The notes beneath the pieces were generated by a model, which saw only the letters and a list, made by a program, of their open reading frames with translations, did no database searches and was not told the origin of the DNA. This document shows positions 1,757 through 59,104 of a DNA stretch of 64,000 nucleotides, piece after piece; within the stretch, counting starts at the first letter, position 1, and each line of letters starts with the position of its first letter. The stretch comes from Methanotorris igneus Kol 5 (GTDB lineage Archaea > AGJL01 > Methanococci > Methanococcales > Methanococcaceae). The translations under genes and the position numbers were made by a program. The stretch lies in the NCBI RefSeq assembly GCF_000214415.1, contig NC_015562.1, positions 434,001 to 498,000 of the forward strand, read 5' to 3'.

Positions 1757-2159
1757 TGCCGTTCAAAACTGTTTAGTTTTTTGTGAGTATTTGTGAGTAT
1801 ATATATGTTTATGAGTTTTCGATATATTTATATAGAACTTTATAAAGATAAAAAGATAGATGGGTGGAGCTTGGGGTCATCTCGGAGCGAAGCGACGAGA
1901 ACTATAGTTGTGTGCGTTGTAGTTTGGAAATATGCTGCTGATGAATTTTTAACGGCTGTAAGCCGTTTCAAATTTTAAGGTGGCTTATTACTATTTGAAA
2001 TTTATTAAGGTATGAATAAGTTTAAAAAATTCCGCACACAACTATAAAAACCGTTAGGTTTTTATGTCCACGACAGGGGCAGAGACACTCTTGTGTGGCT
2101 GATGACGCCCAAGTCCAATATGGGTATTTACTCACCAATACTCATATTGGACAGACCCC
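1757..2159 (+). repeat. MRE-B copy 1: promoter-bearing structured RNA element, interrupted by a MITE
   Basis: The element runs from TGCCGTTCAAAACTG to CAGACCCC. Without the MITE at 1905-2044 and its duplicated TA it is about 261 bp, the size of MRE-B copy 2 at 32740-33000. It carries its own TATA region (about 1820-1835), with transcription expected near 1858. The predicted RNA holds GGCTGATGACGCCC and a 3' hairpin GTCCAATATG / CATATTGGAC extended by GTATT / AATAC. Its last bases encode the C-terminus of thymidylate kinase on the opposite strand (GLSNMSIGE, then stop). Confidence 0.7.
1905..2044. mobile_element. MITE (140 bp) nested in MRE-B copy 1
   Basis: The ends are TAGTTGTGTGCG and CGCACACAACTA, perfect 12-bp inverted repeats flanked by TA on both sides (1903-1904 and 2045-2046). 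The uninterrupted MRE-B copy at 32740-33000 provides the empty site: there the sequence passes from GACGAGAAC straight to AAAAACCG. It has no coding capacity. This is the clearest evidence in the window that the MITE family transposes, with TA target duplication. Confidence 0.85.
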
Positions 2160-24097: not shown

Positions 24098-24406
24098 TGC
24101 CATTTGAAACTGTTTAATTTTTCATTGACGAATGTAGACATTAATGTATTTTCGTTTTCGAAATTTTTATATATGAGTTAATATACATATAAATATAAGG
24201 ATGATGCCTCTGATGAAGGTGGATACTGGAGACCTAAGGAGGCGGACTTTATCAGAGTTCTAAATCTTATGGGCGGAGTTGGGGTCCCCGCGACAGGGAT
24301 AGAGACCGATGATATGTTCCCGATGAACCCAGAGGGAACTGAGGCTGATGACATCCAAGTCCAACGTGGACATTATGTCTATGATTGTTCACGTTGGACA
24401 GACCCC
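24098..24406 (+). repeat. MRE-A copy 1: promoter-bearing structured RNA element
   Basis: A 309-bp element from TGCCATTTGAAACTG to CAGACCCC. A TATA box (TTTTTATATA, 24164-24173) predicts transcription from about 24198, giving an RNA of about 208 nt. Stems seen are GCCTC/GAGGC, CCC/GGG around GTCCCCGCGACAGGGA, GTTCCC/GGGAAC, and a terminal GTCCAACGTG/CACGTTGGAC. It differs from copies 2 and 3 at a few positions, including a 2-bp length change that breaks the ORF seen there. The 3' end supplies the stop of the CBS gene. Confidence 0.75.
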
Positions 24407-32636: not shown

Positions 32637-33008
32637 TAGTTGTTTGCCAATTTTATACGGCAAAACTTTGTTTTGCCATTTATTTTTTTAAAAGAACAAT
32701 AAACCAACATAAAATTCCAAATAAAGGCTAAAGAAGTAAGGGGTCTGTCCAATATGGGTATTGGTGAGTAAATACCCATATTGAACTTGGGCGTCATCAG
32801 CCACACGAGAGTGTCTCTGCCCCTGTCGTGGACATAAAAACCTAACGGTTTTTAAGTTCTCGTCGCTTCGCTCCGAGATGACCCCAGAGCCACCCATCTA
32901 TATTCTTATCTTTATAAAGTCTTATATAAATATATCGAAAACTCATAAACATATATATACTCACAAATACCCACAAAAAACTAAACAGTTTTGAACGGCA
33001 AACAACTA
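32637..33008. mobile_element. Long MITE copy (372 bp) enclosing MRE-B copy 2
   Basis: Ends TAGTTGTTTGCC and GGCAAACAACTA are perfect 12-bp inverted repeats with TA on each side (32635-32636, 33009-33010). The left part has the usual GGCAAAAC/GTTTTGCC palindrome. The rest is filled by MRE-B copy 2, which abuts the right terminal repeat. Confidence 0.7.
32740..33000 (-). repeat. MRE-B copy 2: uninterrupted promoter-bearing RNA element
   Basis: A 261-bp element read on the minus strand from TGCCGTTCAAAACTG (33000) to CAGACCCC (32740). It matches copy 1 (1757-2159) apart from a few substitutions and the MITE present only in copy 1. The terminal stem uses a G-T pair (GTTCAATATG/CATATTGGAC) and the inner stem GGGTATT/AATACCC is perfect here, so pairing is kept despite changes. 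Its TATA region lies near 32920-32940. Confidence 0.75.
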
Positions 33009-33091: not shown

Positions 33092-34216
33092 ATGGAACTA
33101 CAAGAAATCAGAAGAGAACTTAATGATTATTTCTTAGAAAGAAGGGAAGAAATCGATATTGCTTTAACTGCGTTAATTGCAAATGAACACTGCATTTTCT
33201 TAGGAAATCCAGGAGTTGCTAAATCGCAATTGATTAGGGCAATTGCATCCCATATAAATGCCAATTACTTCGAAAAGCTTATAACGAGGTTTTCAACAGA
33301 GGATGAGTTATTTGGCCCATTAAGCATTAAAGAACTCAAGGAAAACGATAGATTCGTTAGGAAGACAGAGAATTATTTGCCAAATGCTGAAATTGCCTTC
33401 TTAGATGAGATTTTTAAGGCAAATAGTAGTATATTAAATGCATTATTATCAATAATGAATGAGAGAATTTACCACAATGGAGATGTTATCCAAAAAGTGC
33501 CCTTGATAAGTTTGTTCGGAGCATCTAATGAACTACCAGAGGAAAACGAGTTATTAGCATTTTACGATAGGTTTTTGTTTAGGAAGAAAGTAGATAGAAT
33601 AAAATCTATGCTAAATCTTGAAAAATTAATTGATTTAAATGAGAATTATAAACCAAAAACAACAATGGACATAGATGAAATAAAAAAATTGAGAGAAAAG
33701 ATAGAGAAGGTTGATATATCTAACATAAAGAGATATCTAATAGACATTAAAATGACGTTGGAGAATGAAGGCATCTATATTTCTGATAGAAGATTTAAGA
33801 AATCAGTTAAAGCAGTTAAGGCTTATGCTTTTTTAAATGGGAAGGATAATGCAGATGAGAATGATTTAGATATTTTAAGGCATATATACTGGGATGAGCC
33901 GAATGAGTTTTATAAGGTGTCAATAACCATTTTCAAAATCTCAAATCACTTCTCTGGCTTTGCTCTGGAGCAGAGGGAAATTTTAGATGCTCTAATGGGA
34001 GAATTAAAGAAGATAAACAAAGATAGGCTACCACTTGGAGGCATTGAATACAGAAAAGTTCTTGAAATTCTTGGAAAGATAAATAGCATTGCCATAACTT
34101 TAAAAGATGTTAAAAGAAAGGCAGAAGAGAATGGGAAACCATCTGAATTCGTGGAGGAGGTTTTAAAGGAAGCAGAAGGGCTAAAAAATTATGTAGAAGG
34201 TCTTTTGAAAAATTAA
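33092..34216 (+). CDS. MoxR/RavA-type AAA+ ATPase
   Basis: A 374-residue AAA+ protein: Walker A LGNPGVAKSQ near residues 36-45, Walker B EIAFLDEIFKA near 97-107, sensor 1 FGASNELPEE near 142-151, and an R-finger region DRFLFRKKVDR. These ATPases act as chaperones with VWA-domain partners; the VWA gene lies at 35108. Together with the interrupted membrane-protein gene between them this forms a three-gene unit. The ATG follows GGTGA. Confidence 0.85.
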   Translation: MELQEIRRELNDYFLERREEIDIALTALIANEHCIFLGNPGVAKSQLIRAIASHINANYFEKLITRFSTEDELFGPLSIKELKENDRFVRKTENYLPNAEIAFLDEIFKANSSILNALLSIMNERIYHNGDVIQKVPLISLFGASNELPEENELLAFYDRFLFRKKVDRIKSMLNLEKLIDLNENYKPKTTMDIDEIKKLREKIEKVDISNIKRYLIDIKMTLENEGIYISDRRFKKSVKAVKAYAFLNGKDNADENDLDILRHIYWDEPNEFYKVSITIFKISNHFSGFALEQREILDALMGELKKINKDRLPLGGIEYRKVLEILGKINSIAITLKDVKRKAEENGKPSEFVEEVLKEAEGLKNYVEGLLKN

Positions 34217-34269: not shown

Positions 34270-35093
34270 ATGGAAAAAAGCATTAATGACATTAAAACCA
34301 AATATTTTTCTCTTGGTATTGCCCTTGGAATGACAATCGTGATTGCTTCATATGTTTTATTAAATTATGGATTTGAAAAGTGGGACGAATATCCTTTGAA
34401 CTATAGTAGGGTTTCAGAATTTAAGATATACGACGATACCTTAGAAATTAACAATATCTCCTACGGAAAAAATGTCCTAAGAATGAACAACTTCATAAAG
34501 CCAATCTTAGGAGAGGGGTCTGTCCAACGTGAACAATCATAGACAAATGTCCACGTTGGACTTGGATGTCATCAGCCTCAGTTCCCTCTGGGTTCATCGG
34601 GAACATATCATCGGTCTCCATCCCTGTCACGGGGACCCCAGCTCCGCCCATAGGTTTAACACTCAGTAAAGTCCGCCTCCTTAGGTCTCCAGTATCCACC
34701 TTCATCAGAGGCATCATCCTTATATTTACATGTATATAAACTCATATATAAAAATTTCGAAAACGAAAATACATTAATGTCCACATTCGTCAATGAAAAA
34801 TTAAACAGTTTCAAACGGCAAAATTATATGGGGTTGATATTACTGTTGTAGGTCATTATCCAAGAATAACATTGACTTATGTTGTTAAAAGACCAATAAC
34901 AAAAGATAACATTAAAATTATAAAAAATCATTTGGAAAATAATGGTTATAAGTATAGCAAAACTTACCATCCAACATTCTCAAATAAATATCTCCTTGTG
35001 TTTAAGAAAAATAATACCAGTCTTTACATAACCTATTATGAAGAAAGCAATAGAATCGAATTTTGTGAGGAATATTCCCTAATCAGAAAGTAA
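34270..35093 (+). pseudogene. Membrane-anchored protein gene split by MRE-A copy 2
   Basis: The 5' part (ATG 34270, GGGGG upstream) encodes an N-terminal helix (FSLGIALGMTIVIASYVLL) and a short outer domain ending ...NNFIKPILGE. It then runs into the repeat, which adds GSVQREQS and a stop at 34542. After the repeat (ends 34820) the same gene resumes with LYGVDITVVGHYPRITLTYVV (split here for length: LYGVDITVVGHY, PRITLTYVV) and continues to 35093 with a Lys/Tyr-rich domain. Removing 34515-34820 would give a continuous product of roughly 170 residues. The original function is unknown; a truncated membrane peptide may still be made. Confidence 0.75.
34515..34820 (-). mobile_element. MRE-A copy 2 inserted in a coding sequence
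   Basis: A 306-bp element on the minus strand, apparently identical to copy 3 (58799-59104) over its whole length, including the promoter segment and the RNA. It interrupts the gene at 34270-35093, which shows that the element has moved recently. I see no target duplication at its ends. Like the other gene-linked copies it lies antisense to the target, with its CAGACCCC end facing the upstream codons. Confidence 0.8.
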
Positions 35094-35107: not shown

Positions 35108-36472
35108 ATGAAAAATGTCATCGTTCATGATGCCTACGACAAGAAGGCATTTGAAAGTTTCCTAAAAAATAACAGATACCTAAAGGCACTTTTGAGAAAT
35201 TATAGCCAGTTCAGTCCATTACATGAAAAATTGGCAGAGGATACATTTTATGCTTTTTTTAAGTATGTTGTTGAATTTAATGAAGTTGTTGAGGAGGAAT
35301 TTAAAATAAACAAAATCATCCTTGAAAGTGGAATGAAGTCAATTGAATATGAGAAGACAAAGTTAATGACTGAATTGGATGAAGTTAATGCAGGAATGGC
35401 AACCAATATGTTCCTTGAGAGGTTTTTTGAGAACATTAAATCATTAAAACTCCAAAATGTCTATAAAGAACTTGCTGAAAGAGCTAAAAATAAAGAAAAA
35501 GGAAATAGTGAAGGCATAAGTTTAGATAGCGAAGGTGAAAATGCAGAACTTGATGAATTCGTGTCAAAAATAAAAGATGTTGCCAAAAATTCATTAAAAG
35601 AAATCTCTGAGGACATTGAAGATACGATAAATGGGATGAATGCAGTGTCTTCTTGGGGTAGTGGAAAGGGAAATAAAAATGCCTTAAATCCAGAAGAGAG
35701 AATAAAATTGGCATCAAAAATCTTGGAAAATAAAAACTTGCACAAAATCATTAAAAAACTTGGAAAATTAAAATTCATAGCGATAAATGAATACAAATCA
35801 AAGATAAAGCATTACAGTGGGGAGATTTATTCGATAAAAATAGGGGATGACTTGAAGCATTTATTACCAAAAGAACTTGTTAATTTTTCTGATGAAGTTT
35901 TATACCTTGATTTTTTAAGGAAATTTGTGGATAAAAAACTCCTAACCTATGATTTGGATAATGAGGTTAAAAAGAATAAAGGCCCAATTATTGTTTTATT
36001 AGACCACAGCGGTTCTATGTTTGGGGAGAGGGAAATTTGGGGGAAAGCCGTAGCTTTATCAATAATAGAGATAGCAAAAAGGGAAAAGAGGAAATTTGGT
36101 TATATTGCATTTGATGATGATGTGAGGTTTAAGAGGATATTTGAAGATATTTCCATTGATGACATTTTGGAGTTGGCATCATTGTATTATGGGGGAGGGA
36201 CAAATTTTGAACTACCATTAGAATGTGCAATGGAGATGATAGAGGAAGGTTTTGATAACGCAGATGTTGTATTGATCACCGATGGATATGCAGAAGTTAG
36301 TGATGAATTCTTAAAAAAATTGGATGATTTTAAAAAAGATAAAAAATTAAAATTGATATCCATCTTTATTGAGACGTATCCAACTGAAACAATAAAGAAA
36401 ATTTCAGACGAGTTTGTAAAGGTTTTTGATTTGACTGATGAAGAGGCTAAAAAAGTATTTAGAAAGCTGTAA
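35108..36472 (+). CDS. VWA-domain protein, partner of the MoxR ATPase (ViaA-like)
   Basis: A 454-residue protein. The N-terminal 290 residues are helical and charged. The C-terminal von Willebrand A domain carries a MIDAS motif (IIVLLDHSGSMFGE near residues 295-308, DxSxS as DHSGS), with YGGGTNFELPL and LITDGYAEV supplying the T and D. It works with the AAA+ protein encoded 1.9 kb upstream, by analogy with RavA-ViaA. The ATG follows GGTG. Confidence 0.85.
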   Translation: MKNVIVHDAYDKKAFESFLKNNRYLKALLRNYSQFSPLHEKLAEDTFYAFFKYVVEFNEVVEEEFKINKIILESGMKSIEYEKTKLMTELDEVNAGMATNMFLERFFENIKSLKLQNVYKELAERAKNKEKGNSEGISLDSEGENAELDEFVSKIKDVAKNSLKEISEDIEDTINGMNAVSSWGSGKGNKNALNPEERIKLASKILENKNLHKIIKKLGKLKFIAINEYKSKIKHYSGEIYSIKIGDDLKHLLPKELVNFSDEVLYLDFLRKFVDKKLLTYDLDNEVKKNKGPIIVLLDHSGSMFGEREIWGKAVALSIIEIAKREKRKFGYIAFDDDVRFKRIFEDISIDDILELASLYYGGGTNFELPLECAMEMIEEGFDNADVVLITDGYAEVSDEFLKKLDDFKKDKKLKLISIFIETYPTETIKKISDEFVKVFDLTDEEAKKVFRKL

Positions 36473-58798: not shown

Positions 58799-59104
58799 TG
58801 CCGTTTGAAACTGTTTAATTTTTCATTGACGAATGTGGACATTAATGTATTTTCGTTTTCGAAATTTTTATATATGAGTTTATATACATGTAAATATAAG
58901 GATGATGCCTCTGATGAAGGTGGATACTGGAGACCTAAGGAGGCGGACTTTACTGAGTGTTAAACCTATGGGCGGAGCTGGGGTCCCCGTGACAGGGATG
59001 GAGACCGATGATATGTTCCCGATGAACCCAGAGGGAACTGAGGCTGATGACATCCAAGTCCAACGTGGACATTTGTCTATGATTGTTCACGTTGGACAGA
59101 CCCC
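58799..59104 (+). mobile_element. MRE-A copy 3: promoter-bearing structured RNA element
   Basis: A 306-bp element, apparently identical to MRE-A copy 2 (34515-34820, other strand). TATA TTTTTATATA lies near 58865; the RNA probably starts near 58898 and ends at the GTCCAACGTG/CACGTTGGAC hairpin and CAGACCCC. Here it lies between genes (about 100 bp after atwA). A 69-codon frame inside it is not conserved in copy 1 or subfamily B, so I treat it as non-coding. Confidence 0.78.

What the first reader, a model, noticed from the sequence alone, without database searches (positions are those of the whole stretch)
34270..35093. MRE-A insertion splits a gene between a MoxR ATPase and a VWA protein
The frame ends ...NNFIKPILGE before the repeat and resumes LYGVDITVVGHYPRI after it. 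Excising 34515-34820 restores one continuous membrane-anchored protein. The interruption is direct evidence of insertion into coding DNA and may have disabled or remodelled a three-gene chaperone system.
Basis: seen in the sequence. Interest (0 to 1): 0.72.

Follow-up and report, generated by a model that had tools for sequence, protein, structure and literature searches.

The report
Miniature IS607 transposon splits archaeal gene
A 302-base stripped-down jumping gene, which keeps the guide-RNA end of an IS607/TnpB transposon but none of its proteins, has landed inside a small membrane-protein gene in a hyperthermophilic methanogen and cut it in two; this is mostly an ordinary mobile-element event, but it explains a whole repeat family and points to an oddly altered TnpB clade.

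Summary
The interruption is real but needs correcting. Keeping the target GGC (34817-34819) gives one continuous frame, ...KPILGE-A-KLYGVD. Uninterrupted homologues spanning the junction exist in Methanocaldococcus sp. FS406-22 and, more distantly, M. jannaschii, at other loci.

'MRE-A' is a non-autonomous IS607-family element: no inverted repeats, no target duplication, inserted at (G)CC/GG(C). It shares both ends with TnpA(serine recombinase)+TnpB elements, including a complete 2,001-bp copy in this genome. It retains the covarying right-end RNA (reRNA/omega-RNA) on the minus strand, with the host gene as predicted guide. Empty sites in the sister species confirm the boundaries at three other copies.

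The 'three-gene chaperone system' is not supported: in 10 Methanocaldococcus genomes MoxR and VWA are 1-34 bp apart with nothing between. The split gene is a lineage-specific extra.

Unexpected: all 18 TnpBs of this IS607 clade examined have glutamine at the third RuvC aspartate position (DRD to [ND]RQ), while seven other TnpBs in these genomes keep it, so cleavage-based homing is uncertain.

The parts
34515..34816 (-). Miniature non-autonomous IS607-family element ('MRE-A'), net insertion of 302 bp; left end GTTTGAAACTGTT begins at 34816, right end GGACAGACCCC finishes at 34515
   Evidence: Copy alignment fixes the ends; ends shared with IS607 TnpA/TnpB elements; boundary by empty sites at other copies
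34817..34819 (-). Target trinucleotide GCC (GGC on +), retained and not duplicated; contributes an Ala codon in the uninterrupted frame
   Evidence: Empty sites in G001 at three other copies carry GCC, GCT, GCT at the same place
34515..34640 (-). Right-end structured RNA (reRNA/omega-RNA) overlapping the remnant of the TnpB 3' coding region: closing stem GGGGUC/GACCCC, P3 GGAUG/CAUCC, inner GUUCCC/GGGAAC, terminal hairpin GUCCAACGUG/CACGUUGGAC
   Evidence: Folding; covariation between families and species; overlaps the 3' end of tnpB in parents
34495..34514 (-). Predicted guide: host sequence directly 3' of the right end, TCTCCTAAGATTGGCTTTAT
   Evidence: Position by analogy with TnpB reRNAs, whose 3' end reads into the flank (PMC8612924, PMC10711439); inference, no RNA data
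34270..34514 (+). N-terminal half of the split gene (hydrophobic, probable membrane anchor); now runs into the element and stops at 34540-34542
   Evidence: no Pfam or NCBIfam hit
34820..35093 (+). C-terminal half of the split gene, open but without an ATG start (first TTG at 34872)
   Evidence: matches FS406-22 homologue L038:1366-1878
33092..34216 (+). Intact MoxR-type AAA+ ATPase (374 aa)
   Evidence: PF20030 E 2.1e-56, PF07728, PF17868
35108..36472 (+). Intact VWA-domain protein (454 aa)
   Evidence: PF13519 and VWA relatives; 89% identical in the sister species
32740..32999 (-). Related miniature element of the second family ('B', 260 bp) between a cbiH-like gene and moxR
   Evidence: Shared ends GCCGTTCAAAACTGTT / TTGGACAGACCCC
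24099..24406 (+). Another A-family copy at the very 3' end of a CBS-domain gene; its empty site TTTTGCC|ATTAATTT is seen in G001
58800..59104 (+). A-family copy 99% identical to the finding's copy
1758..2159 (+). B-family copy carrying a further nested palindromic insert

Best explanation
The repeat is a miniature, protein-less derivative of a methanococcal IS607 transposon. A complete IS607 element elsewhere in the genome supplies TnpA, a serine recombinase, which moved this 302-bp copy into a GG(C) site of a small membrane-anchored protein gene by dinucleotide crossover. That left no inverted repeats and no target duplication. The insertion brings in-frame stops and splits the gene into a stub of about 82 host codons and a start-less tail of about 90 residues, so the gene is most likely inactivated. 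Shown: ends, copy number, target use at three other copies, shared ends with TnpA/TnpB parents, a covarying right-end RNA domain, intact junction-spanning homologues. Inferred: mobilisation in trans by TnpA; transcription of the right-end RNA on the minus strand with host sequence as guide; that TnpB loaded with it would recognise the uninterrupted allele next to GCC. Whether it would cut is doubtful because the third RuvC aspartate is Gln in this TnpB clade. The split gene is a lineage-specific gene lodged between moxR and vwa, not a conserved member of a three-gene chaperone system.
For: Exact common ends over 27 elements with no duplication. Sister-species empty sites: TTTTGCC|ATTAATTT exact at the 458099 copy; GCT|GCG and GCT|AAAT at two others. 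Same left ends upstream of tnpB or same right ends downstream of it at 11 TnpB genes in G000. IS607 TnpA by NF033518 E 2e-72 and PF00239, with four TnpA copies in G000 and one complete 2,001-bp LE-TnpA-TnpB-RE element at 1154257-1156257. A-element DNA matches parents at 70-96% at the left end and about 66-84% in the right part. P4 hairpin 247 of 250 cells paired, 7 of 10 pairs with double changes over 25 distinct sequences. IS607 has no TIR or TSD and targets GG (PMC6188088). Joined protein aligns across the junction with FS406-22 (BLASTP E 1e-8 for the single pair; 1.8e-4 per genome) and with M. jannaschii (2.8e-8, profile). MoxR-VWA gap 1-34 bp in 10 genomes.
Against: No empty site for this very locus is available, because no other genome held carries the gene between moxR and vwa. 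The homologues that span the junction are only about 30% identical. Two of the three empty sites have GCT rather than GCC. No expression, transposition or RNA data. TnpA acting on miniature copies is inferred from shared ends only. P4 pairs were located partly by their complementarity, which inflates the paired percentage.
Confidence: 0.87

Rival explanations
1. The miniature element belongs to the IS200/IS605 (Y1 HUH transposase) world, as haloarchaeal PATEs do, and was moved as single-stranded DNA next to a short target.
For: No TIR or TSD, target next to the left end, near-terminal hairpin, tnpB-derived right end: all shared with IS605-derived PATEs (PMC3119063). IS605-type elements with Y1_Tnp exist in G001 and G029.
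Against: No Y1_Tnp in G000. The Y1 elements in G001/G029 lack these ends. Elements with these ends carry IS607 serine recombinases.
Confidence: 0.06
2. The insert is tolerated or exploited: it remodels expression of the moxR-vwa cluster (promoter, terminator or antisense guide RNA), or yields two functional short proteins.
For: Both halves remain open without further stops; the element is structured and carries AT-rich, TATA-like DNA near its left end.
Against: The C-terminal half has no ATG and only a TTG 17 codons in; moxR and vwa are intact and adjacent in relatives without the gene. An insertion nearly identical to another copy may simply be young.
Confidence: 0.12
3. The two halves are two unrelated genes and the repeat sits in an ordinary intergenic gap.
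For: No uninterrupted copy at the same locus in any genome held.
Against: Frame continuity over 179 codons; FS406-22 and M. jannaschii homologues span the junction; no relative with separate halves in 61 genomes; the retained GGC gives a gapless alignment.
Confidence: 0.05

Closest known systems
IS607-family insertion sequences (TnpA serine recombinase + TnpB), e.g. the M. jannaschii-like copy L178, FS406-22 plasmid copy L179
   Same: Same left end (GCC-TTCCGAAACTGTT / GCC-GTTTGAAACTGTT), same right end (...GACCCC), no TIR, no TSD, GG/CC target, reRNA at the right end overlapping tnpB
   Different: The miniature element has lost tnpA and nearly all of tnpB and must be moved in trans
PATEs (palindrome-associated transposable elements) of Haloquadratum, PMC3119063
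   Same: Short, no TIR, no TSD, near-terminal palindromes, derived from tnpB-bearing elements by core deletion
   Different: PATEs derive from IS605/IS1341 (Y1-type) elements; these derive from IS607
SMN1 and similar archaeal non-autonomous elements (PMC3718332)
   Same: About 300 bp, mobilised in trans by a related IS transposase
   Different: SMN1 depends on ISC1733; here the partner is IS607 and a guide-RNA domain is retained
MJRE palindromic repeats of M. jannaschii with coding potential (recalled from memory; paper not in the held library)
   Same: Interspersed palindromic repeats in Methanococcales, some inside genes
   Different: Not compared by sequence; this copy breaks rather than extends its host frame
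TnpB-reRNA homing (ISDra2, PMC8612924; ISXfa1, PMC10711439)
   Same: Right-end RNA whose 3' end reads into the flank, target motif next to the left end
   Different: Third RuvC Asp replaced by Gln in all 18 TnpBs of this clade examined; activity untested

Membership tests
IS607-family (non-autonomous derivative) | Ends shared with an element encoding an IS607 TnpA serine recombinase | tested here: met
   Ends at L102 44-2044, L179, L180 with NF033518/PF00239 TnpA
IS607-family (non-autonomous derivative) | No terminal inverted repeats, no target-site duplication | tested here: met
   Flank table and empty sites
IS607-family (non-autonomous derivative) | Insertion at a GG (CC) dinucleotide | tested here: met
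   CC at the left joint and CCCC at the right in nearly all copies; exact GCC empty site for one copy, GCT in two
IS607-family (non-autonomous derivative) | Movement in trans by IS607 TnpA | not testable with these tools
   Needs a transposition assay
IS200/IS605 / PATE | Partner Y1 (HUH) transposase sharing the ends | tested here: not met
   No PF01797 in G000; Y1 elements in relatives have other ends
TnpB-reRNA (omega-RNA) bearing element | Structured RNA at the right end, overlapping the tnpB 3' end in parents, ending at the element boundary | tested here: met
TnpB-reRNA (omega-RNA) bearing element | RNA expressed and bound by TnpB | not testable with these tools
   No RNA data
TnpB nuclease (for the parents' TnpB) | RuvC D-E-D active site | tested here: not met
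   D and E present, third D position is Q in all 18 clade members; seven other TnpBs in these genomes keep DRD
Conserved three-gene MoxR-X-VWA system | Homologous middle gene between moxR and vwa in relatives | tested here: not met
   Gap 1-34 bp in 10 Methanocaldococcus genomes; absent in G001

The most novel reading that the evidence does not exclude
The methanococcal IS607 TnpB clade has lost RuvC cleavage (third Asp to Gln) but kept RNA-guided DNA binding, and the many miniature elements act as a dispersed set of trans-acting guide RNAs, each programmed by its own flank, that mark or silence sites instead of cutting them. The copy in this window would be aimed at the uninterrupted allele of the gene it broke.
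Probability: 0.13. Interest if true: 0.78.

Novelty: new variant of a known kind. Interest (0 to 1): 0.45.

Why it matters
It turns an unexplained repeat family of a hyperthermophilic methanogen into a defined class: miniature IS607 elements that discard every protein gene yet keep the guide-RNA end. It gives exact insertion rules from empty sites, removes a supposed three-gene chaperone system, and exposes a TnpB clade with an altered catalytic residue, so that guide RNAs persist beside a nuclease that may no longer cut. That makes it testable whether TnpB's use to its transposon depends on cleavage.

Tried and rejected
2) A 305-bp insertion (GCC as element DNA): replaced by 302 bp after empty-site comparison and the gapless homologue alignment. 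3) IS200/IS605 origin: first favoured, then rejected when parents proved to carry serine recombinases and no Y1 gene was found in the genome. 4) Rfam: no family at gathering score, and only chance-level hits at E up to 10. 5) k-turn or C/D sRNA reading of the GATGA/CTGA motifs: not pursued, since the motifs are part of the reRNA domain. 6) P3 stem statistics: my automatic register was wrong for the B and D families, so only P4 numbers are relied on; P3 is read by eye. 7) Genome-wide scan for more homologues of the split protein: none. 8) Phage and plasmid collections: no phage match; one plasmid match, the IS607 of NC_013888. 9) Empty-site alignments at 194757, 348791 and 366917 were uninformative because the flanks have diverged.

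Full report
Setting. The window is G000:C1:434001-498000 of a closed 1,854,197-bp genome. Size and company (Methanococcales, a draft sister species in the same genus) fit Methanotorris igneus; that name is inference. G029 is Methanocaldococcus sp. FS406-22, since its 12,197-bp contig gives the same match as plasmid NC_013888. G028 has the size I recall for M. jannaschii (inference).

Observation. MoxR (33092-34216) and VWA (35108-36472) are intact. Between them an N-terminal half (34270-34514) and a C-terminal half (34820-35093) flank a repeat. The joined frame spans 179 codons stop to stop, against a shuffled 95th percentile of about 90 and a maximum of 131.

What the repeat is. Nine long copies share exact ends. 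Pattern searches for the two ends found 27 elements under 600 bp with ends GCCGTT(TG/CA)AAACTGTT...GGACAGACCCC or close variants, mainly in an A family (about 305 or 353 bp) and a B family (about 261 bp, larger with nested inserts). They have no inverted repeats and no duplication. The same right ends lie just downstream of seven tnpB genes, and the same left ends just upstream of four more, in the same genome. Elements with these ends in M. jannaschii (tnpB there appears interrupted), FS406-22 and the sister species encode a serine recombinase that matches NCBIfam transpos_IS607 (E 2e-72) and PF00239, plus TnpB. G000 has four TnpA copies and one complete 2,001-bp element. BLASTN maps both ends of the A element onto these parents. 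One frame of its minus strand, MGGAGVPVTGMETDDMFPMNPEGTEADD, resembles the TnpB C-terminus GGVGVPVTGVEVDDLLSNEPRGELRP. So 'MRE-A' is an internally deleted IS607 element.

Boundaries and target. Sister-genome empty sites exist for three other copies. At 458099 the empty site reads TTTTGCC|ATTAATTT where this genome has TTTT-GCC[element]ATTAATTT. At 802053 (a CBS-domain gene intact in the sister and in 12 other relatives) it reads GCT|GCG against GCC[element]GCA. At 643970 it reads GCT|AAAT against GCC[element]AAAT. The GCC is thus target sequence that is kept, not duplicated. This agrees with IS607 crossover at GG and lack of duplication (PMC6188088; PMC10711439). For the finding, the net insertion is 34515-34816 and the ancestral frame reads KPILGE-A-KLYGVD.

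The split protein. It has no Pfam or NCBIfam match. A 170-aa FS406-22 ORF aligns across the junction (31% over 99 positions), with LGEIKLSG facing LGEAKLYG. A profile search adds a 202-aa M. jannaschii ORF, also across the junction. Both are at other loci. No relative among 61 genomes encodes separate halves, and a scan of the GTDB contigs found no further homologue.

The supposed three-gene system. In ten Methanocaldococcus genomes the moxR stop and vwa start are 1-34 bp apart; here the gap is 891 bp. In the sister species moxR and vwa are on different contigs and neither has the gene beside it. A paralogous MoxR-HEAT-like-VWA locus occurs in relatives with an unrelated-looking middle protein of about 210 aa (the HEAT label is by eye). 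Nothing here shows a chaperone system disabled.

Right-end RNA. On the minus strand the last 130 nt fold into a closing stem GGGGUC/GACCCC around inner stems and a terminal hairpin. The hairpin covaries over 25 distinct sequences from several genomes, paired in 247 of 250 cells, with seven of ten pairs showing double changes; the segment was located partly by complementarity, so the percentage is inflated. P3 reads GGAUG/CAUCC, GGACG/CGUCC, GGGUG/CACCC and GGGUU/AACCC in different elements (by eye). In TnpB elements this is the reRNA, and its 3' end reads into the flank as a guide (PMC8612924, PMC10711439). Here the guide would be TCTCCTAAGATTGGCT..., which in the uninterrupted gene lies directly next to GCC. 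That is inference.

A twist. The TnpBs of this clade keep the first RuvC Asp (GVDSNL) and the Glu (FEDL), but the position of ISDra2 D361 (DRDENAALNI in 8bf8) is Gln (NRQFVGCFNI). All 18 clade members examined read [ND]RQ, whereas seven other TnpBs in the genomes examined read DRD. Homing by cleavage is therefore uncertain; binding without cutting is possible. The numbering of D361 as catalytic is from my own knowledge.

Verdict. The insertion is real and the gene is most likely broken. The element is a new variant (IS607-derived, guide-RNA-bearing) of a known kind (non-autonomous tnpB-derived elements such as PATEs). The chaperone-system claim fails.

Noticed in passing
L153, L156, L159, L162-L167, L169-L176, L178 (TnpB loci): Every IS607-type TnpB examined in this clade has [ND]RQ in place of DRD at the third RuvC position, in at least four species, while seven other TnpBs in the genomes examined keep DRD.
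   Followed up: partly
G000:C1:802053-802404 (L085): A second A-family copy splits a CBS-domain gene (102|37 codons) that is intact in the sister species and 12 other relatives.
   Followed up: yes
L024-L028, L094, L099, L101, L103: A palindrome of about 48 bp (ACATAAAAACCTAACGGTTTTTAAGTTCCCGTCGCTTCGCTCCGGGAGAA) is nested at the same place in A elements and inside the tnpB 3' end, where it adds codons ending ERSDGNLKTVRFLCP; a small palindromic insert with coding potential.
   Followed up: no
window 1758-2159 and G000:C1:653981-654382, 573932-574386: B-family copies carry a further nested element with ends ATAGTTGTGTGCG / CGCACACAACTAT, apparently a separate small inverted-repeat element.
   Followed up: no
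L064-L069 (G001, G023, G027-G029, G024): A paralogous locus MoxR - about 210-aa HEAT-like protein - VWA exists in relatives; in G024 the VWA copy looks disrupted.
   Followed up: no
G000 elements at 366917, 348791, 458099, 643970, 754301: Many copies sit at or just beyond the ends of genes, so host frames end inside or next to the element; insertions that destroy genes are the minority (2 of 27).
   Followed up: partly
G001:C8 (L126) and G001:C20 (L044): In the sister species moxR and vwa are separated by rearrangement.
   Followed up: no
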